Of a DNA stretch of 64,000 bases, positions 1 through 63,395 are shown in pieces (within the stretch, counting starts at the first letter, position 1; each line of letters begins with the position of its first letter). Position numbers and translations under genes: made by a program. The notes under the pieces are model-generated. The model saw nothing but the letters and a program-made list of their open reading frames with translations, was not told where the DNA came from and made no database searches. This DNA comes from Pomacea canaliculata (taxonomy: Eukaryota > Mollusca > Gastropoda > Architaenioglossa > Ampullariidae), in assembly GCF_003073045.1 (NCBI RefSeq), contig NC_037592.1, positions 9,080,007-9,144,006 of the forward strand. The letters run 5' to 3'.

Positions 1-3000
1 AGCATCTTGACTGCAACTGAAAAATAAAATAGAATGACATTAGTTGTTAATGACTACACTGGTTTCTATACACTTTCCACCAAAATTCAGTTTATGGGTA
101 CCTTGATTTGTCTTTAAATGATTTTATTTTTTGTTCATAAAAAACCCTAGCAATACCCATTTTGTTTACGATATCTAAGTTTATAAATTAATAGTTTGAC
201 ATGTATGCAAACAAGCCTGAGCTGTAGAATTACATAAACCCTTATATTCATATCACTATCCATGCATTGCCATTTTCTGTATCCTCATAGAAAATCACGT
301 GTTTTAATGAATTTGAAGGTTCGACATTTTTCGGGTGAGTGTTTAAAGTTTAACATATCCTACCACTTGGGAAGACAAGCAGGTTATTGTTTTGTGAGTT
401 TAGAATGAGTGTGTTATAAGGACAGCATGAATATCAAAATTACGAGATATTACTCTGATTATAAACTGTTAGATGATGATGATGATGATGCTCGTGATGA
501 TGAGTCTGATGATGATGATGATGCTGATGATGATGATGTTGAGATGATCGATTGAATGATGATAGATATGGCGACAAATTCATGTTTACATTGATTTTTG
601 GTGACAATAAATGATCAGTTAAGACCAACTGTACTAAGAACAATGTTTTTTCGTTTTACTGACTACAAAAGAAACTTGATTTTGTTCATTCCTCTCACAA
701 AAGGCATTAATTGTAAAATGTTTCCTTTGTAATTATCAGTTTCTACACATGTTAAGTAGTCTCAGTCTTTAAAGTTTAATCAGAGTATCGAGATCACGTT
801 CAATCGCAAGGAGAATCCTTGTTTACCTGAACAAAACGCTTCAGTACTTCTGTCAACCTGCTGCCACTTATTAGAAAGACTGGAACTGCATGCTTTGGTG
901 TTCTCTGACAGACACTGGAAAAACTGCTGGGATATGACCCTAAGAGAAAATAGTCAACGTGTTTCATTATTACATATTCTATCGCTCAGAGAAGAAGTTA
1001 ATAATGTATAGTAAAACTTGAAATTAATGCATTTTGTACATGCCTGGCTTAGTCATATAATAGTAGAAACAGATTCTTGGGTTCTGCCGATGTTTCTTCT
1101 TTGGCTTTTATACTAAAAGAAGACAAAAATCAGCTTAAGCATACATACAACTTAAGAAAATAGCCAAAATTATAAATACAAATTTTACCAATCTTTCATG
1201 GACAATAATTACAAGATGATTATGTAGATAATGTATGTTTGAATATAATATGGATAAATTAGAAATAACATCTGATCTCTTTCAATTGTAAATTAGAGTT
1301 ATACTTACAGTAAGAAAAATCCAAACCCAAATTACCCGTAAGATATCTAACACAAAAAAAGTTCATTAATGAGCTTTGATAGTTAACTAAATATTGAAAA
1401 TGATACTTAAGCCAAAATTAACCCGAGATTTGGAAAATAAATTCACATTTGTACCATTTGAGTTACGTGAAAGAAATTCAAAGCAATCAGATTTTAAATG
1501 GTTTAGAAAGTGTAATTGTATGTAAACAATAACAAACAAATTCTTTATAATATATATTTTTTTCAAAAACAAGCGAAGATAAAAAGAAATATAATTTAGT
1601 GAGGATTATTGTTGATCAGTAGGCAAGATTTGCTATTTATAGAATTACATGAAAGTTACAAACTTTGAAGAGGAGGGTTCAAAACATTTGTATGCTGCCA
1701 GAATTCTTCATAAATCAGTTGAAAAGTCGGAACTACCAGACGAAGAATTAAGGAATTTGCTTGCTTCATTAAAACATACGGTAATGCCGGGACATTCTGA
1801 AAAGTAGGAATTAAGATATTCCAAAAACTTTGCAGACAATACAACAAACCTTGGCAATAAGTTGTTAAAGCCCTATTTTATTTTCATTGTCTGTGAAGTG
1901 TCTGTCTTCTAACTCTTGTTTCTTTCTGTTCCCTTACAGCTTGGTATGTAAAGCTCCCTCGGACACTGAAACAATTACGTGCGATACTCTGATCTTTAAC
2001 TCCGTGATATCACTGAATTATTTATCGTTTTTCTCGTACTAGGATACAGAGATCCTTCAACTGTTCATGATATCTGCGACTTTTGAGATCCGCGGGAGAG
2101 AAAATGTTGTCAGAAGAAAGAGTTACTTGGCGTTGTGAGACAAGGCACCGTGTCAGTACTATAGTCAGTACAGTAGTTCACTGATGTCAATAAAACAAAA
2201 CATCAGGGTTTGTGCACGCAGAGCCAGACTAGTATTACATTGAAAGACTGTGATAAACGGACTAGTAATCACATCAGTAGCCTGGTAACTTGTACTAATA
2301 ACCTGCCTGCAGGCAAATTCCTTTCTCAATTTCTGTGAACAACGAACTGATGACTGGTTACCTTAATGTGTATATGCTTGTATTATATTGCAAGATAACT
2401 GTATTTTCTATTTCAGTGTATTGTTGAGACAAAATAAATGTTTAAAAAAAACAACAAAACAAACATATTTTTTAAATAACGTGTAAAAAATAATAGTTTA
2501 TTGTATAGAAATCAAATGACTTAAAATTTACAAAATTAAAGTATTAATGTACCGAATTTGCACACTTGTGTATAAAAGTAAACGAATACAATGGCCTCTT
2601 GCAATTCGGTGGAATGATCACATTGCTTGATAAGGCTGACGCAGTCTCGAAGACTGCTATGTGTTCTTGCTCATTGGAAGAAGAAATAGAGGAACATGGT
2701 TTGACACAAAAAAAGCGAGTTATCCGGAGTAAGAAGGATATGAAACAAACTCAGGAATTTGGAAGGTAAAACTTTAAAATCGGAAACTGAATATTTACTT
2801 GATGGACAAGATATGTTATCTGTCCAGATCTGGTGAATAGGATCGTCGGTAAAAATATTTTACTTTCAGGTGATTAAAACAATGACAATAAACCACACAT
2901 ACATAGTGCTAGAAAAGCAATGACCAGATTTGGTAACATGTCTGAAGAATTCTTACCATATCTTGGTGATGTACTGTAAAGTAGGAGGGTTTACTTTTTC

Positions 3001-4287
3001 CGTATCAGTGATGCAAAAACATTGCTTGACCTTAGTGTCTCAACGTCTTCCTGAAAATTGAGTTTAAGCTGTCTGAGAAAGAATAAAAAATTAACAGAAG
3101 AGCTGATGGCTGTAAATGGCTGTATTATGTGTTGTGTTGTCCCTTTCACTCGTCAGTATACACACAATAACCTCCTTTCATCCATTGACTTTGTCAGTCT
3201 CATATCCTCACTTCCAGCCATGATAAGAGGACGATGAGGGGCGAAACGTAATATAAATAAATTTAACTAGAAGTTGGTGGGCTCTTCACAGATGGACAAC
3301 TAGATTTTAGTTGTAAACGATATTTGTATGTAACGTTACAATATATCTATTCCATTAAAACGAATATAGAACAGAAGGAAACTAAAAAATCTTCAATAGT
3401 AGAATTTTTAAAAAGTAAGTTTTCATATTAATTAGCTCTCCTATTTTTTCTATGAAACAGGATACCTTGCAACACTTCTTGTATCCTCTTTATCGCGTTT
3501 TAATTCGCGCTGCTGATTTCCACATAATTGTAACATGAATACGCGGTCAAACAGTCCTGAAAGTTCTGGCGCAAGGGTTGACACAATTCTTTTATAATCT
3601 CCAAATGTAACAAAACACAAAAATTGTAAGCTTTTAAATCAGAGGGACAGCAAAATGTGACCTTCAAGATGAATTAGGCGAAGAATAGACAGAAAGTAAA
3701 AGTATAATTAAAAATATGAAGTATTTGATGTTCCCCATCAACACGGGATTTTGTCTTTTGTTCTTTATTTAATAACTGCGCAATGTGCATCCCCCCCCAT
3801 AACCACAACAGTGAGGGGTGAAGAGTAAGAGGCAGAGAAGAAAATAGAAGAAGAAAGGGGTGTAGACAATGGTAGCAGAGGGTGGATAAATGTCCATAGA
3901 CTTTTAGCGTAAAGAACGATTGGTTCCACCATGTTCTTCATTTGTATTTTCGCTTGTTATATTCCATTCCTGAAAAAATCGCCGATTCGCTGCTCGATGG
4001 AAGATTTTGGTGCTATCTAGAAACATTAAGACATTAAAAAACAGAATAAAACAGAAATTGTTGGACGGAAAGCAGTAAACGAAATAGACACGAATGGGGA
4101 GAAAGAAAATGGTACGACCAGAAATATCGGGAGCCAGAAATACTATAATACACCATAGATACATAAAATCGCGCCGAAGCTATCCTTACTGTGTCACTTG
4201 CATTCGTTCTTTTTTCGTTATGGGTCGGGAGGTTTGATGTGGATGTTGCTTGCATTTCGCGCTTGGCTATTATCTGAGATGAGCAGA
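1..4287 (-). other. Gene 0, partial: 5'-half exons of an array gene, on a contig end
   Basis: This segment aligns through introns and exons with 53830-58750, the 5' half of gene 3. Exons visible on the minus strand are a fragment of D4 (about 1-16), a clean D3 second exon (827-939), D3 first exon (about 1693-1795), D2 exons (2553-2669 and 2957-3050), D1 second exon (about 3466-3575) and a broken D1 first exon (about 4193-4287). The 827-939 exon is open, with good splice sites. Further right, defects accumulate: single-base indels in the 1.7 kb exon, one extra base in the 2.6 kb exon, a Cys codon changed to TGA in the 3.0 kb exon, a lost acceptor at 3.58 kb, and near-unreadable sequence at 4.2 kb. 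The trend towards the N gap suggests base-calling error rather than old pseudogene decay, but a real pseudogene is not excluded. The rest of the gene lies left of the window. Confidence 0.6.
827..939 (-). CDS. Intact exon of gene 0 (second exon of module D3)
   Basis: Acceptor AG at 941-940 and donor GT at 826-825 enclose 113 bases, open in the expected frame (phase 2 in, phase 1 out). The product contains FFQCLSENTKACSSSLSNKW, then a Q-Q-V-D-R stretch and a final F-C-S before the donor, matching the gene 3 exon 55062-55168 almost residue for residue. It carries three cysteines of the six-cysteine module. It is the best-preserved exon of gene 0 and argues that gene 0 is, or recently was, a functional paralogue. 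The rest of its gene is damaged by the contig end to the right and cut by the window edge to the left. Confidence 0.7.
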
Positions 4288-4387
4288 NNNNNNNNNNNNN
4301 NNNNNNNNNNNNNNNNNNNNNNNNNNNNNNNNNNNNNNNNNNNNNNNNNNNNNNNNNNNNNNNNNNNNNNNNNNNNNNNNNNNNNNN
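4288..4387. other. Assembly gap of exactly 100 N
   Basis: One hundred consecutive N, the conventional placeholder for a scaffold gap of unknown size. The sequence on both sides aligns to the same paralogous region (55.2-58.8 kb), so the gap probably joins overlapping contig ends and may not represent missing sequence. Confidence 0.98.
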
Positions 4388-8650: not shown

Positions 8651-8709
8651 GAAGATAACTCGACAGCTCCTTGACAGCAGAATGTCGTGTGGAAAAGCAA
8701 CGAAGAGTG

Positions 8710-8715
8710 TTTATA
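8710..8715 (-). promoter_or_regulatory. TATA box upstream of gene 0
   Basis: On the minus strand the sequence reads CTGTATAAACACTCTTC. It lies about 65-75 bases upstream of where the gene 0 start codon should be, in the same place and context as the gene 2 box (GGTATAAACATTTCTCC). Gene 3 has lost this stretch by deletion. Confidence 0.5.
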
Positions 8716-8719
8716 CAGA

Positions 8720-10200: not shown

Positions 10201-10227
10201 TTTGTTTGTTTGTTTGTTTGTTTGTTT
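10201..10227. repeat. (TTTG)n microsatellite
   Basis: Tandem TTTG units. The paralogous copy at 59630-59690 is longer and partly TGTG, so the tract has changed length since the duplication. Confidence 0.85.
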
Positions 10228-11129: not shown

Positions 11130-12420
11130 AGAGAGAGAGAGACAAAGAAAGAAAAGTACAAACACGTAGAAAAAGAGAGAAAAACGTTTGACAGATTAAC
11201 TCGAAGTAACTTGTCATTTTTTCGATGCAAATACGAGGAGACAAAGCAGCAATAATCTCCATTTAAAGTCGATCGCGCCTGCGATAGGATACTCAGAGCA
11301 TTACTGAGTGCAACTACAGGAACGTTTAATGTGTTTTAAATTTTGTCACTTTATTGTTTTAGTTGCTTTTGCAAAATAGATTGCAGCGATGAACCAGACA
11401 CTTTCAGGTTCTGATACAATCTGCATCCATTTTCCTCTACTTCAATCACTCTAAAAGGACAACGACAGATTAGAATATAGGCCACTCCTTTCGTCTTCCT
11501 TAAAAGGACATAACAAGAGCGCAGGAAGTAGGGTGATGACGTGTGCAACAAGTAACAGCGAGTTACAAGTGACGACTGACGAAGGTGAGTGGACGCGAAG
11601 ACACAAACTTGCAGCTGCACTGACTCTCACATCTGAACTTTGGCCATGCTATTGGAACTATTGTCAAATTAAATATGAAGAAAACTATAGAGAGAGAAAA
11701 GTTATCGTTAGAATCTTCTAATTTTAATTAAACTTTTTATTTAAACCGGAGTCATACAGTCATTTGCTTGCTGTTACTTTACTAATACTTTCCGCTTCGA
11801 AATCACAGCCTGAAATTTTAGAATTTTAAGAAATGTCAACGGGTCCACACACAACTCAGACCACAAAGCTCAAAGGACTGAACGAGACTAAAACACTTTG
11901 TACTTTAAGAAAACAAGAAAGCAGCGAGTAAATTGAAAACAACATTGGTGTTTATTGAAGTTTCCTTATCTGTTGTCTGTGTACTGAAAAAAAAACCCAA
12001 CAAAACAAATGTTTTGTAAATACTTTTGGCACTTTTACACTCATTCGCTAAAATATTAATGTCACTAGAAGCATCGAGATAGTCTTGCCTCCATAATGGT
12101 CAAGTTAGGGTAGAATCAGTAGCAGTTCCTATTGTGGTGTCAGCTGAATAATACTTCAATTAAAGGCATGTCAAAGTACTTTTACAACACATTAGTATGT
12201 TGGGAACAAAATCAAGGTTCTTTTTTTGCCTCGAGGTTCATATGCTTTGCATTAACATTGCTGGGTAATAGGCGACAATTACGTACCTTCTTAAATAAGG
12301 GAAATAATTCTTTTAATTATTATACAAGGACAACTTCACAACTTCTAAAATTACTGAACAAGAATTTGTTTTTTAAAATGTCACATGTTTTCTACCAAGA
12401 TGATATTAAAAGTAAGGACT
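11130..12420 (-). repeat. 3' flank of gene 1, co-duplicated behind gene 2
   Basis: This stretch aligns with 23760-25310, the 3' flank of gene 2, with landmarks such as 'actttcaggttctgatacaa', 'ggagtcatacag' and the 'aaaacaagaaagcagcgag' run. A shorter part (11200-11425) recurs at 60410-60608. The flanks were therefore copied together with the genes. A minus-strand AATAAA at 11951-11956 could serve as a poly(A) signal, about 465 bases past the stop. The ORFs at 11351-11620 and 11533-11721 are not conserved in the 24 kb copy, so I do not treat them as coding. Confidence 0.55.
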
Positions 12421-15400
12421 TACGGGTTTGCAGAAATCGTCGCAGTTTCCACGGTTGTGAAATCAAAACCTAAATTAATTAAACGCTGAGAATTACTGCC
12501 CTTTGTTGGTAGGTAGATGAGACATAATGAAGTTTGTTTTGGAAGGGACGCAAGACGGGTTCGAACCGGCTAATGGTGTGTGCAAAAGTGCTTTGATAAT
12601 AAAAAGAAAACCGAGGTACTATAGTCGACGGAATCATCACATCATCTAGTGATGATGATACAAGTACCTTTGCATAAGCGTCTCACTGTGGCATTGGCAG
12701 CGGCAAAGTTGTTATCTATTATCGCTGTTGTCAATGAACAGGCGTCAACCTCTTGTTCTATACACTCCGTGGCATGGATTAAAATCCTGTGAATGGAAAT
12801 ATTTATGATTTAAAAGTTTGAAGAAAATTCACAACTTAGACGCAAATAAGGATTGGGAAAACACTACGCTAAGTTAAAATATCTTGGATTTGAACTCGAA
12901 CTGCATGGGAATATCATTTGTAGCTAACAAAATCTGACATTTTAAACTAGATGTTAGAATGGTTAGTTTTCAAGATTGCAAGATTCTTTATTCTTTCACC
13001 CTCTCAAAGGTGTTCCGATATTTATTATATACATATATATTCACACACATTCCGATTTAGTAGTTTATTTTTTATGTGATATTATTTTCCACAAAATCGA
13101 GTGATACTTTAATAATTGACATTACAAATTGTTCTTAGAGGCAGTTTAAATAGAAAAGGAAAATCAAGATAGAACACTTATTAAGACTCTTCGATATTTT
13201 AATGTGTTTCTAGTTTTTAATAGACAAGTATTTACGATATTTTAGGAAGAGTCTTGATTTTGACCTTTGATAAGTCAACGTCGATTTTGTTTCTTTCATT
13301 CGATTTGATTTGGGGGATTCCTAATAGAATAGTTTAGTAACTCTGGTCATTTTAAAATATTCTGCACCAGATCGAGTCTAAATAAAAGTTCCATTCCCAG
13401 TTCTATTGCAAAATTGAAGTGTTACCGTCTCACTGGTTTAAATAAAATAAGAGATGGAAGGGAGGAACACACAGGCAAAGAATGGAGGTGATAGATGACG
13501 GTAAGAGCAGATCAGTTTACAACATTATGTTCTGCTTACTTACCTGCACCATGTACTGGGAGTAAGTATGGCCGCTCCGATGTCTGCAGCGGAAAGCGAG
13601 ACAGAGACCAGTGTCTTCAAGTCACCAAGACTGACCCCCGGCACCAGCTGTGCTTCGTCAACACACGTCCTGACACTTGGACAGGACCAAGTCTTGGTCG
13701 TGTTTTGCTCAAAGACTTCAAAATGACAATGAAACCTGGTCATTTTCAGTGGCTTCACGGCAATCATTTTATTTATTTATTTAGTCAATATAGTTCTATT
13801 CAAAATGAAATCATATTGTGAGTGTTGTACTATTAGGTATGCCAGTTAATTCATTGCTTAGTAAAAAGTATAAAAAAACTACAAAATCGGCATCTGGAAG
13901 CCAACAACATAAAGAATAAAATACTGTGGAGTCTTGTTGTTACTGTAAATACAGTGAACAGCGATAAGAAAGCTAGTCCTTACAAGAAAGCCAATGTGAG
14001 TCTCAAGATGATGCTGTGTGTTTGTTTACCTGTACAAACCGCCTCAAAGCTTTTTTCAACTCGCTGCCACTTGCTGCTGAGGCTGTCACTACATGAACTG
14101 GTGTTTCTAGAGAGACACTGGAACCGTGGCCTTAGAATCCTAGAATAAATACTTTCATGAACTAGCATGTGCAACAGGCCATTTTAACGAGTATAATTAA
14201 GCACAAACTCTTAATGACGCAAAGAGAATAAAATTTTTATAGTTAATTTTATTAAAAATGATTAAACAGAATAAAAATGATTTAACTAATGATTAACCAC
14301 AGGTGGTTTGTTTTTAGAAAAATTCCTAAAATAAGTGCTAGTTACCCGCAAGTGGGGCTTGTCAACGTGTGTACAGAAGAGTACAGTCTGGCAAACAGGT
14401 AGTCTACCTGATCTTGAGCATCCATCCAACAAGCAAAAGCACCGGGGCACTCTGGTTACAAATATTTTTGAAACAGCCACTCGTGCTACAAAAGGTTACA
14501 ATAGTATTTAGTAGTGGACTGAATCACCTATCGAGACTACATCTGAAGATTGTAGGTAATTAAAGATATGTAAATTAATCTTAAATGGCAGGGAAGATCA
14601 CAGGGCGTATGCTACTACAAACAACACATACAGTTAATATCCACAATAACTAAACAGTACTACTACATCATACTACAGACAATAGCTACGTTTTATCAAC
14701 TTTAATAAAAACAGTGATTATAATGGTGACTAAAAGAACAAAAACCGGAAAAAAGTTTCTTGTATTTATTCACTCACAATAACTAGAATGAAATAACCTC
14801 AATAATGTTGTGATCTGAGAAAAAAAAACCTGTTTTGCACGCTCCATCCATCATTTTAAATGTAACGGAAAGTGATTGCCACACAGTTGTATCTTTATTG
14901 CAGCCTCCTATTTGTCCTGTGCAGTCCTTGTATGAGTTCATGCTCTGGCTGGGGGCAAAAAAGGGGGATACAAATATTTAACGGATGTGAAAGACAAACA
15001 TCTTAAAATATCTACTACAGGGGATTTTTTTTCAATAATTAATATACGTTCTGCACATAGTACTTTCTAAAATGTGAGTTTAAAACCATCCTCTCTTTTA
15101 AGACAGGTTCACAGACATCAAGTAAAGAGATCAAGACCAGAGACACACTTACATTCAAGAACTACCAAAGATAATGTAGAGGTGAATATCGCAAAGTACC
15201 CAGTTTTTTAACATACAATTTCCACTGCCACTTTGTATAACGTGTGCAGTAAGTAAAGTCAAATAAAGTTGAATATTGTATGTGTGCTTCTGAATTAATT
15301 ATAAGACCATTACTTTACCCACCACATGCTCCCGGCGTTCAACATCTCGGAGGAGCACGCGCACTTCACGAGCTCCAGGGCGCACAAGGTGTCTAGAAGG

Positions 15401-39100: not shown

Positions 39101-39134
39101 GGTACAAGATGCTGAAACAATTTTCATAAAATGT

Positions 39135-39168
<34 letters not shown>

Positions 39169-39169
39169 A

Positions 39170-39228
<59 letters not shown>

Positions 39229-50300: not shown

Positions 50301-53300
50301 CTACCTTACACACTCTCACCCTATGTAGAGTAATGTCTTTAGTGGAACCTTCATTAAGTAAGCATAAATAAAACTGACTAGTGTGTATTTCTAAGTGAAG
50401 AAGAGCTCTCACCACATGCTGGCGGAGTGTAAGATGTCAGCAGTGCACGCGCACTTCACGAGCTCGATGGCGCACATGGTGTCTGCACAAAAACATTGAG
50501 GTCAACCCTGTTTGAGAAATTCTTAAAACTAGAACCACTATGTTATCGCTAAATTCTCAGTCATGCGTTTTCTCTTTATCTCTCTTCCTCTTTTTTTTTT
50601 AAATATGTGTTTATGTCCTTGTATTTGTCTTACCTCCCTTGTGTCATAGTCAACATCACCACTAAAGCAGTCCTACATAGCAAAGGCACACACTCACTGT
50701 CCTTCTTTACATAACATGCATAACACTCCAAATGCAAAAAATATCTACTTTCATCGCATTTATTATTGCAAAATCTGTTGGTTGCTTTTAAAATAAATGT
50801 TAATAAACTAATGATCTGTAATGTAAGCAGTTGGATTGCTTATCAAGTCCCCCAAATCGTTGATGACTTGACTTTTAATTTTGTCGACATTTAGTTTAAA
50901 AGCCATGAGCTGCTGAAGTAAGCAACTCGAGGGAAGATGAAAAAAGATTAAAAAAATGAAAAACAAGATGTTGGAGGATGAGTTTAAGTGTTAGTGTTGT
51001 GAAATAAAATGTGCTTACATTTTTAAAAACGATCTGAATTCTACAAACAAGGCACTTTCCCTTCTAGTTGAAAAAGGATAGTAAATAAAGATAATTAGGG
51101 ATCTAACACCATATAATCGAAAAGCATTATTAACAAATACTTATGTAGATCTTGTGGCATATCTTATAAATGTATCTTATTTGCTCTTTCTTACACTCGG
51201 TTCTTGAATACACGTACAATTACTTATGACATTACCTTTTGAACAAGGGTCACTGTAAGACTGTCGAAGATTACTTATTTGACTGCTGATCACAGGATCG
51301 TCTTCACAGTAATTTGGCAACAAAGTATTGTTAACACAAGACTGCAGTTTCTCAAAAGAACTGTTGGCAAAAACGACAATAAATTTATATCATGTTATTC
51401 TTTATATTTTAATCTTGTTATAAAGAGTACAAGCATTAGTGTTTTAAATGTATATATAAATTTATATGAAACAAAGGAAATGGACGAAAGAGACAAAGAA
51501 GTGTGTGAGTGTAAAAGACAGTTAAAAGACGATAGATGCAATACATCAATCCTCTCTGATGATAGAGACAATACAACTATAAACGAGTAATCGGACAAAG
51601 AATCAGTCAAAGAAAGAGAAGGAGAAAACTCTGAGCCTAAAGATACGAAAGCTCACGAGCAGGTAGTTTCCACAGACTGGATGACGTGGCACTGGACTAA
51701 CTGGATTGACTGGCGGGTTTGGACACCAAACTGTGCATCTGATTTGAGAGATGAATTGCAGGCGTGAAGAAGCAAAGTACAGTTTTGTCTGGCATCAGTA
51801 TCTGAAAATCAAACAACCATTTGTGATAATAGTTATTTATCATAATATTAACTAATACACGCATCTGAGATCTTTTCTTCTTGTTCCACAGGCTTTAGAA
51901 TGTTCAACTAAAACATTAAAACTTGAAATGTTTGGGAAAGAATTATGCTAACCTTAGTATTTTCTATTATACTCCCTATTTTTTTACGCTAGATTGTTTG
52001 AGAAAGGAATTTTACAAATTAGTGTTGAATTTCACAGAGAACCTGCTTTTCTTTAATATCCTGAAGTACTTTCAAGTATAACATGACCCTTTCATAATAA
52101 GAACATATTGCAGAGGAATGTGATATAGGATTTTACAAACGTCTAGCATAAAACTGAACTACTCACAAAAACAGAAACCTGTCTAAAGCCTTTGGAAACT
52201 TTTCTAAATACTGCAAAACTATGTTTACATGTCACTCATATAACAATATTGAAAAACAATAAAACAGACACAACATTTGACAATTCCAATATTCTTTATA
52301 CGGTTAATAATAAACCATTGCAATATCATATCAATTAGTGTCATAAAATAAGATGTAGGCATTCCATTTTTCAGTAGGTATATAGGAATTCACGCACGTG
52401 AACATGTTAATTATATGTGAAGCATGAACTCTGCAAAAGTATGGCAAGTTGAAAGGCAAGCGACATTATCTTCTTGGAATGAAATCACATGTAAACAGCC
52501 AATAAAAAGTCAAAAGTAGAGATTTAAGACCCCAGAACAGACATTCAATTCAATTCAATTCAATTCAATTCAATTCAATTCAATTCAATTCAATTCAATT
52601 CAATACAACTTTATTCATCCACAAGGGCAATTAGAGGTATGATGACACGCCAGCACACTAGAGGGAAGAATGATGTGAGAGATGAAAGGGAATAGATTCT
52701 GGCGACATACACACACACATGTGCACACACACACACACTCATACAGTAACACAGCAACAGGAGGTTCAGTGGGCACCCCGCACAAGGTCACCTCAGACGG
52801 ACACATCATCACAGCTAGTGGAATTTAAAGAAGCTGAATAGATTGTGAGTACTTCTGTCAATGTTTTTTTAAATAAAGCGGAACACAATCACGAAAGCAA
52901 TCACATGATGGTGGGATAACTACAAAGAGACATGCGGAAGGCAAGTAGAGAGGTAGACAAGAAGACAAAACTGAACGACAGACAAACTACAGACACAAAC
53001 AGAGATATAAATCACACGTACGTTACTTCACAGACAATTCACAGCTACCTTCACATAGTCCATCTAGTGTAGCCTTTAAAGTCACTGCTTGCTCTTTTTC
53101 TGTTGCATTGAGGGAGCATTTATCAGCCTCCAGTATCACGCATCCTGCTGCATGTGTCAAATATCTGTTGATTGACAAATTTATAACTCATTTAGGAATT
53201 TGTTTCAGGAAATGGATGTACTGTCTACATATTTTCTGTCTTCAAACTTTCAAATTTTTGTAAAATTGATTAAAAGTAGATATTAGTTAAACGATTTTCT

Positions 53301-56300
53301 CACGCTTAGTCAGCATCTTAGTTTCCCCCCGCAAAGTGTACACAAAGTATGCTGCCATAGTAATGCCTGTGGTAGACATCTTGAGTCACCTTTCTTAATT
53401 TTCTGTTGTCTATTTCATTTATTACTTGGTAATCCTCCTCCTCCTCCTCCTCCTCCTCATCATCATCATCAAGCATACTTTATAATAAATTGCATTCACG
53501 TGAAATCAAATAAAACTAGGGATCGAAGCTTTATAAACTTTGCTGGTTCGGTCAGAACAAGTAAATATCATGGTAACATTATTATTAAGTCAAGCGGCTG
53601 TCAAAAACAAAGCAAAGAAGTGCTAGTAGCATACACGCAGACAAATGCACAGACAAATTCATACTAACGAACACCACCAGCCAGGATTGACGAAAGCGTC
53701 CATAACCGCCGCAGGGTTTGCCAGGATAACTGATTCATCATTTATGTCTTCAGCTATGATGTTCTTCGTCACGACTGCATCATAGGAACATCTCTGTAGG
53801 CTCGAACAGTTTGAGAAATCGTCCCACATCTTGACTGGAGCTTAAAAATAACATAGAATGACAATTGTGATTACTGACTACACTGGGTCTATTACACTTT
53901 ACCACATGAAAAATTAGTGTATGGGTACCTCTATTTCCATGATTCTCTTTTTGTTTCATTAAAAAATAACTTAGCGAATACCCCATTTCTGTTTACGATA
54001 TCTAAGTTAATAAATTCTAAATTTTGACATGTATGCAAACAAGCCTAAACTGTAATGAATTACATATTCACATCGCTATTCATGCATTACCATTGTCTGC
54101 ATCCCTAATGAAAATCACGTGCTTTGATGATGTGAAGGTTTCGACATTTTTCTGAGGTATTTAACACAACTGAGGCGAGGCCATAGCCGGCGTCTTCAAA
54201 TCGATGCCCGTAGACTTTCCCACGGCCATCGCATAGGATGGATGCTATGGTGTCATAGTACAATTTGTAACCCTGTGCTGTAAATGAACGAATACATAAG
54301 GGAGAGAACGCGTGAACCTTTAGGACTTGTTCCTCCAACGATTACTTCCCTTTAAAGGGTGAAAAAGTCAACCAATCGGGTGTTACCGCGTGTAAATTCC
54401 ACTCTTATGTTTTGTTTACTTAAGCGCCATATTGACATTTGTTGGGGGTCACTCCTTTTGACGTGGATTTGTACTCAAATAACGGAAAATGAGAAGAAAA
54501 CAGTAAGTAATATTTAAATTCTATTGTACATAGAATTTTATTTTTATTTTATTTTTATTTATTAGAATAAAATATTATCTTGTTTTAGTACTTTAGGCAT
54601 GTATATATTATGTAAATTTTTTTTTCTTAATTTCTGACTTGTATGACCTTCCACCCGGTTGTGAAATTTCTGCCCCATACAATTATTATCTTTGATATTT
54701 ACATACCTACAACTTGGGAAGACAAGCAGATTATTTTTTGTGAGTTTAGGAATTAGTGTGTTTATAAGGACAGCATGAATATTCAAAATACAGATATTAC
54801 TCTGTTATAAAATTAGAATGATGATGATGACAAATTCATGTCTTACATTATTTTTGTAACATAAATGATCAGTTAAGACAAACTGTACTAAGAACATTGT
54901 TTTTTCGTTTTACTGGCTGACAAAGAAACTTGATTTTGCTCAATCCTCGCACACAGGGTATTAAAAGTAAAATGTTTCCTTTGTAATTATCAGTTTATAC
55001 ACATGTTATGTTATGTTTAACTAAAGTATCGAGACAGCGCTCAGGCAGAATCCTTTTTTACCTGAACACAACGTTTGAAGACTTCTGTCAACCTGCTGCC
55101 ACTTATTAGAAAGACTGGAACTGCATGCTTTGGTGTTCTCTGACAGACACTGGAAAAATGTTGTATCCCTAGAGAAAATATCAACGTGTTCATTATTACC
55201 ATATGCTCAGAAAGGAAGTTAAAATAATGCCTATTAAAACTTAAAATTAATGTATTTTTGTACACTGGCCTTAGTCAATATAATAGTACAAACAGATATT
55301 GGGTTCCCCGATGTTTCTTCATGCTTTTACCAAAAGAAGACAAAAATCGAGTTCTAAGCATGCACAACATAAGAAATAGCCAAAATTACAAATCCAATTT
55401 TAGAAATCTTTCATGGACAATAATTATAGATGATTATTTACATAATGTAGAACGGTTTAAGATATAATATGGGTAAATTAGAAATGACATCCGATCTCTT
55501 TCAATTGTAAATTAGAGTTAAACGTACAGTAAGAAAAATTCAAACCCAAATTATCCGTAAGATATGTAAAACAAAAAAGTTCATTAATGAGCTTTGACAG
55601 TTAACTAAATATTGAACATGACAGTTAAGCCAAAATTAACCCGAGATTTGACAAAATAAATTCTCATTTGTACCATTTGACTTACATGAAAGAAATTCAA
55701 AGCAATCAGATTTTAAAGGGTTTAAACAGGTTTCTGTAAACAATCACAAACACATTTTTTATAATATAATTTTTTCTAAAACAAGCGAAGATAAAAAGAA
55801 ATAGTAATATTATGAGGATTATTGTATCAGTTAGCAAGTTTGATATTTAATAGAATTACATAAAGTTAAAACTTTGAAGAGAAGGTGCAAGATTTGTACC
55901 TGCAGATTTTTTCATAATTAGCTGAAAAGTCGGAAATATCAGACGAAGAACTAAGGAGTTCGGCGTAATCAGTAAAACATTGGAACGTGCCGGGACATTC
56001 TGAAAAGCAGCAAATGGCATATTTCAAAAACTTTGAAGACAATACAACAAACCTTGACATTAAGTTGTTAAAGCCCTATTTTATTTCATTGTCTGTGAAG
56101 TGTCTGTTTTCTAACTCTTGTTTCGTTCTATTCACTAACACGATATGTCAGATTGTTATGTAAAGCTCCCTCGGACACTGAAACAATTATTTGCGATACT
56201 CTAATCTTAAACTCCGTGATATAACTTGTTATTTATCTTTTTCTCGTACTAGGATACAGAGATCCTTCCACTTTTCATATCGGGACTTTTCAGAATCCGC

Positions 56301-59157
56301 GGGAGAAATGTTGTCAGGTAGAGTTACTTGGCGTGTTGTGAGACAAGCATCGTGTCTAGTACTATAGTCAGTACAGTGAGTTCACTGATGTCAACAAAAC
56401 AATCATCGGGTTTGTGCAACGCCGATCCAACTAGTGGGTACATTGAAAGACTTGAAAATGAACTAGTGAAGTTCATACCATTTCCAAGACGGAAAAATGT
56501 CTCCGATAAAACATTGCAATCGACCACATGGGCAGTTTGGCATGGAGCGTCTGGTTAACAACTACACCTTTCACGTTTGCACTAAACTAAGTCGAATAAT
56601 TTAACACCAGTGTGTAAAAAAAGTGTCGTGACAGAAAAAAGCCCCCCCCAAAAAAAAAAAAAAAAAAAAAAAAAACCAACAAAAAACAACAACAAAACAA
56701 AACAAAAATCAAATCCAGCAGAAAAAATGACACCTCTATAGTAGACTTAGTTCCTGTCGCTTTGGAATGACGAACGGTCAGCATACACAAAAGTTCTCTG
56801 AGCAACAGAGGTTAAAATAAAAGATGTCATAGTCAAATGAACTGTGTCCATCGTGAAGTATCCACGGCAAACGGGAATAGAAACCCACACGAATCGAAGG
56901 GGCATTACAAACCAAACGTACGTAGGCAGAAAAATCACATGTCAACAAGGTCCAACACAAAGACGCCAGATAAGACATAGGAGAGAACGCATCCGCCCCA
57001 AGTAAGGCGAAAGGACATCCCTCTATTATAAATTTAAATAAACACTTTATTTAAATAACGTGTAAAAAATAATAGTTTATTGTATACAAACCAAATGACT
57101 TAAAATTTACAAAATTAAAGTATAAATGTACCTAATTTGCACACTGTTGTAAACAAGTAAATGAATCCAATGGCCTCTTGCATTTCTGTGGAATGACCAC
57201 ATTGCTTGATAAGGTTGAAGCAGTCTCGAAGACTGTCTATGTTCTTGCTATTGACAGAAGAAATAGAGGAACGTGGTTGACACAAAAAGCGAGTTATCCA
57301 GCGTATGAAGGATATGAAACAAACCAGAATTTGAAGGTAAAACTTTAAAATCGGAAACTGAATTTACTTTGATGGACAAGATATGTATCTGTAAAAATCT
57401 GGTGAATAGTCGGTAAATATTACTTTCAGGTGATTAAAAACAATAACAATAAACCACACATACATAGTGCTAGGAAAGCAATGAACAGATTGGTAACATG
57501 TCTGAAGAATTCCTTACCATGTCTTGGTGATGGACTGTGAAGTAAGAGGTTTTACCCTTTCCGTATCAGTGATGCAAAAGCATTGCTTGATCTTAGTGTC
57601 ACAACGTCCTCCTGAAAATTGAGTTTAAGCTGTCTGAGAAAGAATAAAAAAGTAACAGAAAAACTGATGGCTGTAAATGGCTGTTTTATGTGTTGTGTTG
57701 TCCCTTGCACTCGTCAGCATCACAACAATGACACTCCTTTCATCCATTACTTTGTCTGTAGGTCCATATACGCTCACTTCCAGCCATGATAAGAGGACGA
57801 TGACGAAACGTATATAAAATAATAACAAGAAGTTTGGTGGGCCTACAGATGACAACTAGATTTTAGGTTGTAAACGATATGTAAGCATAGTTACATATAT
57901 CTATTCCATTAAAACAAATATAGAACAGAAGGAACCTAAAAATCTTCAATCGGATGTATTTTTAAAAAGTAAGTTTTTAATTTTAATTAGTTCTCCTATG
58001 CTTTCTATGACAACAATTACCTTGCCAACACTTCATGTTATCCTCTTCAATACGTTTTAATTCGCTTCTAATTTCCACATCATTGTAACATGAAAACTCG
58101 GTGTTCTTCAAACAGTCCTGAAAGTTCTTGTACAAGCTGTTGACACAATTATTCTATAATCTCCAAAATTGTAAGCTTTAAATCAAAGGACAGCAAAAGG
58201 TGACCTTCAACATGAATTAGGCGAGCGGAAGAATAGACAGAATGTAAAAGTATAATTATAAGTATGAAGTATTTGATGGTCCCCATCCTCGCAGGCTTTA
58301 GTCTTTTGTTCTTTATTCAATAACTGCGCAATGTGCATCCCCCATAACCACAACAGTGAGGGGTGAAGAGTGAGAGGCAGAGGTCTAGAAACAGAACAAA
58401 ATAGAAGAAGAAAGTGGTGTAGACAATGGTACAGAGTGTGGATAAATGTCCCATAGACTTTTAGCCGTAAAGACCATTGGTTCACCATGTCTCTTCATTT
58501 GTATTTTCGCTTGTATTTTCCATTTCCTGAAAAATCGGCCATTCGCTGCTCGATGGAAGATTTTTGGTGGCTATCTAGGAAACATTAAGACATTAAAAAG
58601 ACAGAAATAAAACAAAAAATGTCGGACGGAAAGCAATAAAAGGAACTAGACAGAAGGGAGAAAAGAAAAATGGTACCAACCAGAAACTAAAACAATTACT
58701 CACTTGCATTCGTTTTCTTCATGGTTGATGATTTCGCATTCGGTTCTATTATCTGATGACGACCCAGCTATCAACGAATCTGAGACTGGCCTTAAAGTAG
58801 TCTTGCAAGTATTTAAAATAGCTGTGCAGTTTGTTCCTGAAACTGGCAATAGGAGTTGAGCTTTTTGCTTTGTATTACAACTTACAAATTCGAAACAAAT
58901 CTGGTTGTAACAAAATTCTCCATCCGTGTATGTCCAGTGTATTTTCATTATGTAAAGTTTCATGTGACAAAGCAGAATCACGAACACTTTGCCAATAAAT
59001 CGACATCTTGTCAAAACCATAGAGGTTGTTTTTTTAAAGCATTGATAATAAAGAGTTAAATACTATAACATGTTACAGTTTGTGTAAAATTAAAAAGCAT
59101 ACCACTTTTTAGGAAGACAAGCAAAAGTCCCGCTAGCACAAAGCTGTTCTTCGCCAT
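47313..59157 (-). CDS. Gene 3: secreted eight-module cysteine-rich protein (663 aa)
   Basis: Exons, 5' to 3': 59103-59157, 58704-58842, 58021-58136, 57518-57611, 57132-57247, 55900-55999, 55062-55168, 53669-53840, 53049-53164, 51657-51801, 51236-51360, 50413-50482, 49745-49863, 49260-49365, 48940-49049, 48429-48600, 47529-47644, 47313-47326. They total 1992 bases, an exact frame of 663 codons plus TAA. The signal peptide is MAKNSFVLAGLLLVFLKS. Modules D1-D8 follow, two exons each: D1 NCTAILNTC, D2 QCFC, D3 ECPGTFQCF, D4 NPGWWC, D5 QSIQLVQCHVIQSVETTC, D6 KCACTAD, D7 CPSAFTCWMYAEDQVDFLF, D8 ending ANATVRGLCK. In D2 and D6 the middle Cys codon is split by the intron (TG/C). The 14-base last exon (EQTS, stop) is the least certain part. 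Intron 1 and the leader are normal, but the upstream TATA region is deleted relative to gene 0. Confidence 0.85.
52543..52805 (-). mobile_element. 3' end of a retroelement with a pentamer tail in gene 3 intron
   Basis: On the minus strand, CCCTTGTGGATGAATAAAGT is followed by TGTATTGAATTG and then about 12 TTGAA units (52543-52603). LINEs of several clades end in AATAAA plus a short tandem tail like this. The upstream part contains a CA-rich stretch. It lies between the exons at 51801 and 53049. Confidence 0.55.
53436..53470. repeat. (CTC)n(CAT)n microsatellite in gene 3 intron
   Basis: About eight CTC units followed by CAT units in the intron between the two D4 exons. Confidence 0.9.
54262..54705 (+). 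repeat. Dispersed repeat, copy 2 (about 440 bp)
   Basis: It aligns with 25350-25765. The paralogous intron of gene 0 lacks it: at about 320-350 the gene 0 sequence runs straight from the 'cgacattttt' block to the 'acttgggaagacaagcag' block. The absence in one paralogue and presence in the other make it a post-duplication insertion or a precise loss. Sequence at 54160-54261, also absent from gene 0, is not part of copy 1. Confidence 0.6.
56540..57040 (-). repeat. Gene 3-specific intronic insertion with A-rich end
   Basis: Relative to gene 0 (2290-2450), this stretch is replaced or inserted. It has a G/A-rich homopolymer at 56641-56676 and moderate-GC sequence at 56750-57000, followed by a return to alignment at 'ataacgtgtaaaaaataatag'. 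The homopolymer next to unique sequence looks like a retroelement tail. The open frames in it have no cysteine modules. Confidence 0.4.
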
Positions 59158-59179: not shown

Positions 59180-60608
59180 CTCGACAGCCGTATGTTTCTT
59201 CAGTGAGAGCTTTTAGATTAATTTCCAGCAGCCTACAAAACTAAATAAACAAAAAGTCGTCCTTAATTCCCAAATAGGGACGACTGAAGAAGTAGGTTAA
59301 ACAAACACTTGCCAAGCATGAACATATGTCCGGTTATTAAGAGTCTGTACGTATTTCATGTGCAGACAACTCACTTTTACCAAATATGGATTCACCGGAA
59401 ACAGTACAATGCTCTTAAACTAAGCAGACTGGAGGTTGGAGGGGAAGAGGTGGTATTTTGTAAACTACATCCTTGTACAGAGTTCAGCGAAGTAACTTGA
59501 ACAATGAAATCCTCTCTAGACATCAAAGTTCGTTTAGCAGAAATATGCGCCTAATTATATCTATAATGTAGCATTGTCGCAAACTTAACAATGGTATGCA
59601 AACATCTCGTTTCTTTCTTGTGTGTGTGTTTGTGTGTTTGTTTGTATGTTTGTTTGTTTGTTTGTTTGTTTGTTTGTTTGTTTGTTTTGCATCCTTAATA
59701 CGCTGCACACGAAAAAAAAAATCCGAGAGTCAATCACACAATAAACTTAACTGTATAATTGTAATTATACAGTACACTTTTCAAATAATTTATGTTTTTT
59801 CGTTTTAGATGAAGAGAGCAGGTTTTATATTATTGCGTCACTGCTGACAACGGTCTGATCATTGATTAATAAAATCACAAATTTTATTGGCTGGTACTAT
59901 AAAGCTCTGTATGGCCTGGGTAGACAATAACTTGCCTTAGTATAGTGGCTTTACTGGTTGGCGGCTCTCTGACAAAACAGATTTTCAGATATTACACTAT
60001 AGATGACTCACAGCAAGTTAAAGCTAAATGACGATGAAAAGAAGCTTTTGCGTTTTCAAAGAGGAGAGCCAGAGTTTACACTGTAGTGCTTGTCTCCGTT
60101 CCCTTGGTAACTTCAGCGTGTAACCTAGGTTGCAAAATGTTTTCTGTCTCTTAAGCATGTTTCTAACATCTGTTGTCCTGCGTGCTGCAAACTCCGGAAG
60201 TTCAGCTCCATTCGCCGCACTCTGTCCATCTCAAACACCAAAACTTTCATCTGCTCATTTGTTCTGTGTAAACTAGACTATTGCAACTTTTTGTTTTTAC
60301 TAGCTGTCCACAATACCTCATTCCTAAGATTGAGAAAGTCACACTAATTTCTTACTCTCATCACTGGCTACCAGTTAGAGCCAGAGTATACTATAACTTG
60401 TCGTTTTTTCGATGCAAATATTAGGAAACAAAGCAGCAATAATCTCCATTTAAAGTCTATCGCGCCTGCGATACAATACTCAGAGCATTACTGAGTGCAA
60501 CTACAGGGAAGTTTAATGTGTTTTAAATTTTGTCACTTTATTGTTTTAGTTGCTTTTGCAAAATAGATTGCAGCGATGAACCAGACACTTTCAGGTTCTG
60601 ATACAATC
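59180..60608 (+). repeat. Copy of the gene 0 upstream flank (9255-11425)
   Basis: It aligns colinearly with 9255-11425 except for missing pieces matching 8667-9255, about 9525-10015 and part of 10990-11200. It includes the TTTG tract (59630-59690) and a LINE relic with the LDYCN and HWLP blocks (60060-60390). Alignment stops at 60608, where the inverted segment begins. Confidence 0.75.
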
Positions 60609-60610
60609 TG

Positions 60611-62422
60611 CAAAATGTTATTTCATTCTAGTTATTGTGAATGAATAATTACAAGAAACTTTTTTCCGGTTTTTGTTCTTATAGTCACCCTTATATTCAC
60701 CGTTTTTATTAAAGTTGATAAAACGTAGCTATTGTCTGTAGTATGATGTAGTAGTTACTGTTTTAGTTATTGTGGTATTAACTGTATGTGTTGTTGTAGT
60801 AGCATACGCCCTTGTGATCTTCCCTGACATTTAAGATTAATTTACATATCTTTAATTATCTACAATCTTCAGACGTTGTCTCGATAGGTGATTCAGTCCA
60901 CCACTAAATACTATTGTAACCTTTTGTAACACCATTGGCTGTTACGAAAATATTTGTAACCAAAGTGCCCTGGTGCTTTTGCTTGTTGGATGGATGCTCA
61001 AGATCAGGTAGACTACCTGTTTGCCAGACTGTACTCTTCTGTACAGACGTTGACAAGCCACACTTGCGGGTAACTAGCACTTACTTTAGGAATTTTTCTA
61101 AAAACAAAACACCTGTGGTTAATCCTTAGTTAAATCATTTTTATGCTGGTTAATCCTTTTTTCAGTAAAATTAACTAAAATAATTTAATGCTCTTTGCGT
61201 CATTAAGAGTTTGTGCTTAATTATACTCATTAAAATGGCCTGTTGCACATGCTAATTCATGAAAGTATTTGTTCTAGAATTCTAAGGCCACGGTTCCAGT
61301 GCCTGTCTAGAAACACCAGTTCATGTAGTGACAGCCTCAGCAGCAAGTGGCAGCGAGTTGAAAAAAGCTTTGAGGCGGTTTGTACAGGTAAACAAACACA
61401 CAGCATCTTGAGACTCACATTGGCTCTCTTTGAAGCACTAGCTTTGTTATCGCTGTTCACTGGAAAACGGCTTCTATATGTTGAATTTGTAAATTATTTT
61501 ATACTTTTTACTAAGCGATGAATTAACTGTCTTACCTAGTAGTACAACACTCAAATATGATTTCATTTTGAATAGAACTATATTGACTATCTTTAAATAA
61601 AATGATTGCCGTGAAGTCAGGTGAAATGACCAGGTATGACTGTTATTTTGAAGTCTTTGAGCAAAACACGACAAAGACTTGGTCCTGTCCAAGTGTAAGG
61701 ACGTGTGTTGACGAAGCACAGCTGGTGCCGGGGGTCAGTCTTGGTGACTTGGAGACACTGGTCTCTGTCTCGCTTTCCGCTGCAGACATCGGAGCGGCCA
61801 TACTTACTCCCAGCACATGGTGCAGGTAAGTAAACAGAACATAATATTGTAAACTGATCTGCTCTTACCGCCATCTATCACCTCCATTCTTTCCCTGTCG
61901 GTTCCTCCCTTCCATCTCTTATTTTATTCAAACACTAAATAGTGCACTTTTCAATTTTGCAATGGAACTTTTACTGAGACTTGATCTGGTGCAGAATATT
62001 TTTAAATGTCCGGAGATACTAAACTATTCTATTAGGACTCCCCCACATCAACATGTTAAAATATCGATGAGTCTTAATAAAGGTTCTATCTTGATTCTCT
62101 TTTTTATTTAAATTGCCTCTAAGAACAATTTATAATGTCAATTATTAAAGTATCACTCCATTTTGTGGAAAATAATATCACATTAAAAAAAAACTAAATC
62201 GGAATGTGTGTGAATATATATGTATATAATAAATATCGGAACACCTTTGAGAGGGTGAAAGAATAAAGAATCTTGCAGGCTTGAAAAGTAACCATTCTAA
62301 CATCTAGTTTAAAATGTCAGATTTTGTTAGCTACAAATGATATTCTCATGCAGTTCGAGTTCAAATCCAAGATATTTTAACTTGGCGTAGTATTTCCCAA
62401 TCCTTATTTGCATCTAAGGTGT
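60611..62422 (+). pseudogene. Inverted fragment of a gene 1 copy (modules D7 and part of D8)
   Basis: This is the reverse complement of 12828-14797, so array exons now lie on the plus strand: 60964-61069 (D7 first exon), 61278-61387 (D7 second exon) and 61654-61825 (D8 first exon). The last two are open with intact splice sites and nearly identical to gene 1. The first has its acceptor AG changed to AA (60962-60963). Upstream signal-peptide exons and the D8 second exon are absent, so no full gene can be made from it. Borders coincide with jumps in paralogy on both sides. Confidence 0.8.
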
Positions 62423-62435
62423 GATTACACCTTAG
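62414..62435. repeat. 9-bp perfect inverted repeat at the rearrangement junction
   Basis: CTAAGGTGT (62414-62422), four bases, then ACACCTTAG (62427-62435), followed by a direct repeat of GTGTGATT. It lies exactly where homology to the inverted gene 1 segment ends and homology to 19160 begins. Small foldbacks at junctions are typical of replication-based template switching. Confidence 0.7.
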
Positions 62436-62947
62436 GTGTGATTCGTGTGATACAAAATAGGAAATGTGTAGTAGGCTTCTGTAATTCAGTTAGAAATTTG
62501 TCCTCTGTGGAACATTTGTGCAAAATGTACTCCCTAAATACAGTTTAAAGAGTGTAAGAAAAGCAAAGGACAGTGAGAAGAAAGAGAATATTCAAGAAGT
62601 AATGTAGACAATGGGAGAAAGAGTGGGGAATGGTCCAGTGACCATGGAGACGAGGGGTTCAGCAGGGATGAGATGCAATCAAATGAATAAATCAGACAAT
62701 CGCCGATGAATGAGATTTTTCGCGGCTCACTGGAGTGAGCTTGCCAACCGTTGTCCTATAAATAGAGAGTATAGAGAGAAAGAAAGGAAGTGGGAACATG
62801 AAGAAAATGAAAGGAGTAGGACAGGTAATGGCGACGGAAAGACAGAAAGTGGGACAAAAATAAGTGAGGGAAAGAAGTGAAGACAGAAGGCGGACAGAGA
62901 CAAGTGATTAAAGGATTAAAGATGACTCGTCGAACAAAAGGACTCAC

Positions 62948-63395
62948 TTGCATTCGTTATTATGATCTTCAACGGTTTTGCAGTGGTCTCTATAAGATAA
63001 TCGCTCATTTGTGACGTTAACAGTTGGGGATGACCTTAGAGACTTCTTGCAAGCATCTAGAATATCTCTGCAGGTCCTTTCTGAAACTGACAATGAAAAA
63101 CCGTTTGAGTTGTGATAATAGTTTAATGCCTTGTGGAAAGTCCAAACAAATCAGCATCAACATCAGCCTAAGATCTCTCACAACTTCAGGGACTTTGAAA
63201 AGGCCTTTGACATAGTGTGGCAAGAGAGACTATGGCAAGTGATGCAAAACTTCAGTATAGAGGAAATCGAGAAAGTTTGCTTTAAGTGCTCAATCCCTAA
63301 GTATAAAATGTACGAAAATTCGTGGAATAACATCATCTACCTGTTGGTACGATGAAGAGTAGAAATCCTGTTATCACAAGGCAGCTCCTAGGCAT
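62948..63395 (-). pseudogene. Gene 4: truncated copy of the gene 1 5' end
   Basis: Signal exon 63341-63395 (MPRSCLVITGFLLFIVPT) and D1 first exon 62948-63086 are both open and differ from gene 1 exons by only a few bases. Introns are equally similar, including the LINE fragment. No D1 second exon follows: the copy ends at about 62450, matching 19160, just before the exon at 19021. Upstream, sequence matching 20140-21330 is deleted, so the promoter is also gone. Probably non-functional unless it is spliced to unknown exons. Confidence 0.7.
63140..63310 (+). mobile_element. LINE reverse-transcriptase fragment (second copy)
   Basis: Same HNFRDFEKAFDIVWQERLW block as at 19880-20050, in the equivalent intron of gene 4. 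It was copied along with the gene, not inserted independently. Confidence 0.75.

What the first reader, a model, noticed from the sequence alone, without database searches (positions are those of the whole stretch)
1..63395. Tandem array of secreted proteins built from a possibly undescribed two-exon, six-cysteine module
Seen: five signal-exon or module-bearing loci lie in one orientation, and three have complete or near-complete models with exact reading frames. Every module has the core C-x5/6-C-x(18-45)-C-x(7-8)-C-x(6-7)-C-x(17-22)-C. Known: signal peptide plus dense conserved cysteines implies an extracellular disulfide-stabilised fold. Inference: this is a lineage-specific expanded family. 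The spacing recalls the nematode T20D4.11-like (DUF19) domain, but I cannot show homology. Possible roles include egg, mucus, immune or shell-matrix proteins; none is supported directly.
Basis: partly seen in the sequence, partly recalled or inferred. Interest (0 to 1): 0.88.

Follow-up and report, generated by a model that had tools for sequence, protein, structure and literature searches.

The report
Snail-only array of cysteine-module proteins
A golden apple snail chromosome carries a row of duplicated genes for exported proteins built from a small repeated cysteine-stapled helical unit that matches no catalogued family; the unit distantly resembles the growth-factor-binding end of an animal guidance protein, but what it does is unknown.

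Summary
Confirmed and extended. The window is part of contig C3 of Pomacea canaliculata (golden apple snail). Three spliced minus-strand genes (6, 8 and 8 modules) give the 22 modules reported; RefSeq proteins match the joins over 496/496, 517/654 and 555/659 residues. Each module is a phase-1-to-2 exon plus a phase-2-to-1 exon with six invariant cysteines. The larger repeat is a four-module block (alpha-beta-gamma-delta): single in divergent genes right of the window, doubled in the 8-module genes. A genome search scored 66 matches, all within ~130 kb. Single-block relatives have a GPI-signal-like tail; the window's genes do not. The N-terminal block evolves faster than the C-terminal one.

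No Pfam family matches above cut-off. Three searches of 5.8 billion proteins returned only P. canaliculata proteins, all 'uncharacterized'. DUF19 got no support. The module profile's only PDB matches are RGM N-terminal (BMP-binding) domains: not significant (E 0.66-1.4, hhalign probability 11%) though above 200/200 cysteine-fixed shuffles; another profile lost them, and fold searches did not confirm. Best reading: an undescribed, fast-changing family of secreted and probably GPI-anchored multi-module binding proteins; ligand and tissue unknown.

The parts
20083..20137 (-). g2 signal exon MPKSCLVLTGFLLFIVPT
   Evidence: RefSeq P0001
18903..19828 (-). g2 module alpha1: exon A 19690-19828, exon B 18903-19021
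17191..17776 (-). g2 module beta1: A 17683-17776, B 17191-17306
16113..16742 (-). g2 module alpha2: A 16598-16742, B 16113-16237
14830..15392 (-). g2 module beta2: A 15323-15392, B 14830-14948
14030..14451 (-). g2 module gamma2: A 14346-14451, B 14030-14139
12668..13715 (-). g2 module delta2: A 13544-13715, B 12668-12786
12420..12469 (-). g2 terminal exon GFDFTTVETATISANP-stop as in RefSeq P0001 (ends to a base or two)
40644..40698 (-). g3 signal exon MTKTSLVLTGLLLFIVQT
38993..40423 (-). g3 alpha1: A 40285-40423, B 38993-39111
38212..38756 (-). g3 beta1: A 38660-38756, B 38212-38327
33161..35891 (-). g3 gamma1: A 35807-35891, B 33161-33270
31218..31961 (-). g3 delta1: A 31787-31961, B 31218-31324
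29936..30469 (-). g3 alpha2: A 30325-30469, B 29936-30060
28464..29233 (-). g3 beta2: A 29164-29233, B 28464-28582
27679..28070 (-). g3 gamma2: A 27965-28070 (GC donor), B 27679-27788
26352..27352 (-). g3 delta2: A 27181-27352, B 26352-26464
25909..25949 (-). g3 terminal exon EKLAAMSSLSPIT as in RefSeq P0003
59103..59157 (-). g4 signal exon MAKNSFVLAGLLLVFLKS
58021..58842 (-). g4 alpha1: A 58704-58842, B 58021-58136
57132..57611 (-). g4 beta1: A 57518-57611, B 57132-57247
55062..55999 (-). g4 gamma1: A 55900-55999, B 55062-55168
53049..53840 (-). g4 delta1: A 53669-53840, B 53049-53164
51236..51801 (-). g4 alpha2: A 51657-51801, B 51236-51360
49745..50482 (-). g4 beta2: A 50413-50482, B 49745-49863
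48940..49365 (-). g4 gamma2: A 49260-49365, B 48940-49049
47529..48600 (-). g4 delta2: A 48429-48600, B 47529-47644
47109..47167 (-). g4 terminal exon AKAKERLSSFAVSGYGLIR as in RefSeq P0004 (ends to a base or two)
827..4124 (-). g1, broken left-edge copy: gamma B exon 827-939, beta B exon 2553-2665, gamma A exon near 1702-1794 with a stop inside, decayed alpha/beta pieces; its second block lies left of the window
59192..64000 (.). g5, rearranged right-edge copy of the g2 region: signal exon 63341-63395 (-), alpha A exon 62948-63086 (-), inverted segment 60617-62424 with gamma A 60966-61067 (+), gamma B 61282-61386 (+), delta A 61654-61825 (+)

Best explanation
A tandem family of exported proteins in Pomacea canaliculata made of a small, predicted three-helix, cysteine-stapled module carried on two exons. 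A module starts and ends in phase 1, so it can be added or lost without breaking the frame. The unit that duplicated as a whole is a four-module block (alpha-beta-gamma-delta): one block plus a GPI-signal-like tail in divergent genes to the right of the window, two blocks and no such tail in the window's genes, and a 6-module form that lacks gamma1-delta1. Shown: gene structure, block structure, array, cysteine conservation, RefSeq agreement. Inferred: the block is an extracellular rod of binding domains, first displayed on the cell surface by a lipid anchor and later released as doubled soluble forms; the outer, N-terminal block changes fast and is probably where partners are recognised, while the C-terminal block is more constrained. 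The likeliest fold relative is the N-terminal, BMP-binding domain of RGM proteins, so binding of a TGF-beta/BMP-type or other extracellular ligand is the first thing to test.
For: Exon phases and six invariant cysteines. RefSeq joins. First and second blocks 29-31% identical with 26 invariant cysteines in 8 half-proteins; matching module types beat the cysteine-fixed shuffles, 0/300 to 0/500, except the a2 model on a1 (7/400). One array: 66 of 66 scored matches (76 candidates) at C3:9072761-9202736. Single-block genes, one intact with signal exon and hydrophobic C-terminus. dN/dS without cysteine codons, first vs second block: 1.06 vs 0.60, 1.35 vs 0.45, 0.77 vs 0.49. Predicted model of P0007: pLDDT 68.8, pTM 0.61, each module mainly three helices. 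RGM N domains are the only PDB matches of the module profile; one column-shuffled control gives none; hhalign score above 200 of 200 shuffles.
Against: No expression, protein or binding data. RGM match not significant by E-value (0.11, 0.66-1.4), hhalign probability only 11%, absent with profile A3, whose best hit is an unrelated chain named FD15 at E 0.0061, better than any RGM hit. By module type it is carried by gamma (1/200 shuffles) and alpha (6/200), not beta (194/200) or delta (141/200). Foldseek found nothing at E <= 0.001 and Pfam no RGM_N match. The dN/dS intervals of the first block all include 1, so positive selection is not shown; bootstrap probabilities of the reverse order are 0.025, 0.000 and 0.052. 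Lower dS in the second block (0.30-0.54 vs 0.58-0.84) may reflect gene conversion. RefSeq tails of g2, g3 and g4 differ, so the C-termini are unsure. GPI signal judged by eye only.
Confidence: 0.5

Rival explanations
1. Abundant structural or nutritive secretion (egg perivitelline fluid, albumen gland, mucus or shell matrix): the modules serve as protease-resistant bulk protein, and fast change in the first block is relaxed constraint.
For: Exported, cysteine-rich, 10-11 N-glycosylation motifs per protein, expanded in a snail with elaborate aerial eggs; dN/dS near 1 in first blocks fits relaxation as well as selection.
Against: Every block cysteine is kept; single-block relatives look lipid-anchored, unexpected for bulk secretions; the 12 passages of the Ampullariidae egg paper that I saw name no such family. 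The PV1/PV2 sequences were not compared here.
Confidence: 0.25
2. The modules are true descendants of the RGM N-terminal domain (or of neuritin, recalled as another small GPI-anchored protein), and the proteins are multivalent BMP/GDF traps.
For: Only PDB matches of the 30-module profile and all four matches of the block profile A2; spacing C-x8-C-x7-C shared with RGMA, RGMB, hemojuvelin and the snail's own RGM at C13:21243678; hhalign above 200/200 shuffles; RGMB N domain is a three-helix bundle with three disulfides (PMC7354924, passages).
Against: E-values not significant; hhalign probability 11%; lost in profile A3, where FD15 scores E 0.0061; RGM's first spacing is x4, not x5/6; no RGM C-terminal domain match in Pfam; no Foldseek support. 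RGM was chosen because it topped a search, so the shuffle test is post hoc. Odds lowered from 0.25 to 0.2 on checking, because of the FD15 hit.
Confidence: 0.2
3. Nematode T20D4.11-like (DUF19) kinship.
For: General resemblance of a cysteine-rich extracellular domain (recalled only). One module matched the nematode CPG4 model at E 0.0096 (1 of 30).
Against: No PF01579 match.
Confidence: 0.07
4. Mostly decaying duplicates: a non-functional array kept open by chance.
For: g1 and g5 are broken or rearranged.
Against: g2, g3 and g4 are open over 13, 17 and 17 exons; second-block dN/dS is 0.45-0.60 without cysteine codons.
Confidence: 0.05

Closest known systems
RGM N-terminal domain (Pfam PF06535, RGM_N; human RGMA, RGMB, hemojuvelin)
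   Same: Six cysteines with the C-x8-C-x7-C core (module spacings x8 in 20 of 22 and x7 in 12 of 22) and a last spacing near 21; three-helix bundle with three disulfides (reported for RGMB; three helices predicted here); GPI anchorage of RGMs (recalled) and probably of single-block relatives (by eye).
   Different: First spacing x4 in RGM, x5/6 here. RGM has one such domain joined to a C-terminal domain; here 4, 6 or 8 modules and nothing else recognised; no significant sequence match.
T20D4.11-like / DUF19 domain (PF01579)
   Same: Secreted, cysteine-rich, nematode-expanded family (recalled).
   Different: No profile match in any test here.
GDNF/GAS1 receptor domain (GFR-alpha, PF02351)
   Same: All-helical, disulfide-rich, repeated, GPI-anchored ectodomains (recalled); beta2 modules have a C-x-C-x10-C run, which recalls GFR-alpha.
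   Different: No Pfam match listed; no GFR-alpha chain among the 3 PDB matches of the module profile.
P. canaliculata LOC112559916, LOC112559726-729, LOC112558826, LOC112560281, LOC112560282
   Same: These are the array's own RefSeq proteins, named uncharacterized.
   Different: No paper in the library holds any of these eight LOC numbers (0 papers).

Membership tests
DUF19 / T20D4.11-like (PF01579) | Match to the Pfam model | tested here: not met
   Not listed at E <= 10 for 2 full proteins, 8 half-proteins, 30 modules (HMMER filters drop most matches above about 0.1). Genome search 0 matches with silent controls.
DUF19 / T20D4.11-like (PF01579) | DUF19 cysteine pattern and fold | not tested
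   No DUF19 sequence or structure was held.
RGM_N (PF06535) | Match to the Pfam model | tested here: not met
   Not listed; genome search with PF06535 gave 7 places (2 over cut-off, C13 and C2), none in the array.
RGM_N (PF06535) | Six cysteines with C-x8-C-x7-C core | tested here: met
   x8 in 20 of 22 and x7 in 12 of 22 modules of the window, the rest within 2 residues.
RGM_N (PF06535) | Sequence similarity beyond cysteines | tested here: inconclusive
   0 of 200 shuffled profiles reach the hhalign score, but probability 11%, E-values 0.11-1.5 and no RGM hit with A3. RGM model above all 300 own shuffles for 4 of 38 modules.
RGM_N (PF06535) | Three-helix bundle fold | tested here: inconclusive
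   Mainly three helices per module predicted; no RGM in the Foldseek and VIA rows shown.
RGM proteins | RGM C-terminal domain | tested here: not met
   No such Pfam match in 2 full proteins.
RGM proteins | BMP/GDF binding | not testable with these tools
   Needs protein.
GDNF/GAS1 (PF02351) | Match to the Pfam model | tested here: not met
   Not listed.
GPI-anchored proteins (single-block relatives P0007, P0008) | N-terminal signal and C-terminal hydrophobic tail after small residues | tested here: inconclusive
   P0007: signal exon plus SGFERLSSSGVLSFLVSAAALLKV ending the protein; P0008 runs on past its hydrophobic stretch (SEAKFLHETLI) and its RefSeq model lacks the N-terminus; a third tail exon at C3:9184549-9184620. 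No predictor was run.

The most novel reading that the evidence does not exclude
Apple snails turned an RGM-N-like, BMP-binding domain into a building brick: they strung it into four-module GPI-anchored receptors and eight-module soluble traps, and the outer block is diversifying against a moving partner (a morphogen, a gamete protein or a parasite mimic).
Probability: 0.17. Interest if true: 0.75.

Novelty: new variant of a known kind. Interest (0 to 1): 0.5.

Why it matters
It is a concrete, annotated but unnamed gene family in an invasive crop pest, with the steps of its growth still visible at one locus: single-block GPI-tailed genes, doubled genes without that tail, a 6-module form and broken copies. 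If the RGM link holds, it would be a case of a growth-factor-binding domain multiplied into arrays, and it gives a simple binding test. If not, it is an unclassified cysteine-stapled module with a clean exon definition that a domain database could adopt.
Full report
What it is in. The window is C3:9080007-9144006 of a 440,159,624-base genome in 24 contigs. Proteins encoded in it are returned as Pomacea canaliculata proteins on a contig of 43,189,359 bases, the length of C3. Pomacea canaliculata is an ampullariid snail, the golden apple snail.

The observation. A search for cysteine modules in single open frames finds none of them, because each module is split by an intron. A splice-aware scan on the minus strand finds two exon types: A (enters in phase 1, leaves in phase 2) and B (enters in phase 2, leaves in phase 1), in alternation. 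Assembled with signal exons they give g2 (6 modules, 496 residues), g3 (8 modules, 654) and g4 (8 modules, 659), 22 modules. A version of the same exon rule finds 34 loci on the minus strand, 5 on the plus strand and 3-10 in ten simulated windows. RefSeq proteins agree letter for letter: P0001 over 496 of 496 residues of g2, P0003 over 517 of 654 of g3, P0004 over 555 of 659 of g4, P0007 over 333 of 333 of the outside gene R2. P0003 and P0004 lack the N-terminal exons that I add; the full 8-module layout with a signal is seen in RefSeq P0002, a neighbouring copy. The tails in RefSeq differ between genes and are unsure.

The module. In 30 aligned modules, of 38 held, six cysteines are invariant: C-x5/6-C-x12-40-C-x7-9-C-x5-9-C-x18-21-C. 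Alpha and beta modules have a seventh cysteine. In the six beta modules of the window the third invariant cysteine is encoded across the intron.

The block. Modules fall into four types in fixed order. By median score, profiles of a1, b1, g1, d1 recognise a2, b2, g2, d2 and the reverse, beating the cysteine-fixed shuffles (0/300 to 0/500) except the a2 model on a1 (7/400). Between types the signals are weak: the best are a1 on g1 (0/300), d2 on g2 (2/500), g2 on d2 (3/500) and g1 on b2 (6/500); most others are at background. Three first halves align with the second half of P0005 at 29-31% identity, with 26 cysteines invariant over 8 half-proteins. So the 8-module protein is a doubled four-module block, and g2 lacks gamma1-delta1.

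The array. A protein search of the whole genome with P0002 scored 66 matches of 76 candidates, all in C3:9072761-9202736. A profile scan of 184 kb places, from right to left on the minus strand: R1 and R2 (single blocks), R3 (alpha and beta seen), two further 8-module genes (those of P0005 and P0002), the rearranged g5, g4, g3, g2 and the broken g1. I found no beta A exon for R1, and its RefSeq protein P0008 starts behind it. A signal exon like that of R2 lies inside an open frame at C3:9209813-9210292, so R1 probably starts there. R2 encodes RefSeq P0007: signal, one block, and a tail ending SGVLSFLVSAAALLKV that looks like a GPI signal. Tail exons of this kind were found near R1, R2 and R3; in the window the same queries gave only matches at chance level (E 2.8 and above for the P0007 tail, 1.2 and above for that of P0008), though the RefSeq tail of g4 shares a run like RLSSF with them (E 6.8) and could be a relic.

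Evolution. Without cysteine codons, dN/dS in the first block is 1.06 (g2-g3), 1.35 (g2-g4) and 0.77 (g3-g4), and in the second 0.60, 0.45 and 0.49; the 95% intervals of the first block all include 1, and the bootstrap probability that the order is reversed is 0.025, 0.000 and 0.052. With all codons: 0.90, 1.08, 0.65 against 0.49, 0.39, 0.40. For pairs with g2 the first block holds two modules only. dS is also lower in the second block, so gene conversion may contribute.

Relatives. Three searches of 5,772,631,384 proteins at E <= 10 returned 5, 4 and 3 proteins, eight distinct, all P. canaliculata and all named uncharacterized. Pfam gives nothing above its cut-offs for 2 full proteins, 8 halves or 30 modules; the best single-module matches include nematode CPG4 (E 0.0096, 1 of 30) and neuritin (E 0.059, 1 of 30). 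No paper in the library holds any of the eight LOC numbers.

The RGM lead. The block profile A2 has four PDB matches at E <= 10, all RGM N-terminal domains (RGMB sequence), E 0.11-1.5. The module profile A5 has three, all RGM N-terminal domains, E 0.66-1.4. One version of A5 with columns shuffled between fixed cysteines has one match, unrelated, at E 1, which also shows that E near 1 is noise level. Profile A3, with the single-block gene added, has no RGM match; its hits are FD15 (8ugc_A, E 0.0061, no stretch passing alone) and LEM3 (E 1.9). In local tests an RGM model scores 4 of 38 modules above all 300 of their own shuffles (alpha1 of g2 and g4, alpha of R2, beta2 of g2) and most others weakly; in reverse, the alpha model is beaten by 1 to 142 and the gamma model by 1 to 79 of 1000 RGM shuffles, beta and delta by 37 to 401. 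hhalign of A5 to four RGM sequences gives probability 11% (shuffled control 0.1%) and scores above 200 of 200 shuffles, with gamma 1/200, alpha 6/200, delta 141/200, beta 194/200. RGMB's N domain is a bundle of three helices with three disulfides and binds GDF5 (PMC7354924, passages). The P0007 model (pLDDT 68.8, pTM 0.61) has mainly three helices per module. Foldseek and VIA found no convincing match. I take RGM as a lead, not a membership.

Mechanism. Shown: multi-module genes with signal exons, tandem growth, cysteine constraint. Inferred: cysteine-stapled helical modules act as binding domains; an anchored single block became doubled and soluble; the outer block varies because it meets the partner. 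Which partner, and where in the snail, is not known.

Noticed in passing
60617-62424: Inverted segment inside the right-edge duplicate: the copy of 12829-14797 lies in opposite orientation between forward copies of 9257-11425 and 19166-21818, with 14.8-19.2 kb missing. Real rearrangement or assembly error.
   Followed up: partly
4288-4387 and 4388-9200: A 100-base N gap followed by about 5 kb that matches its paralogues only in patches and has unusually high GC skew (0.24 in 4001-8000); it could be low-quality sequence at an assembly join.
   Followed up: no
37283-37744 (+): Open frame of 153 codons with a motif reading CEMDKDSLYMAL, which recalls family-B DNA polymerase motif C of mobile elements (recalled); no Pfam match. 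It lies in an intron of g3.
   Followed up: partly
41693-42265 (-) and C3:9160477-9160974: Very similar open frames about 1 kb upstream of the signal exon of g3 and about 1.3 kb upstream of the first alpha exon of the P0002 gene; the window frame has no Pfam match. Possibly a transposon piece carried along by the duplication; the tail of RefSeq P0005 maps near it (C3:9159733-9159780).
   Followed up: partly
L013 (C3:9050007-9060006): Two rhodopsin-type 7TM receptor frames (PF00001, E 5e-20 and 6.9e-12) lie left of the array, plus strand.
   Followed up: no
C2:17728991-17729161 (L010): A second place over the RGM_N cut-off (24.6 bits) in this genome, but with three stops inside the match; FCHILNGFLHCVQRKC there resembles the RGM core.
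   Followed up: no
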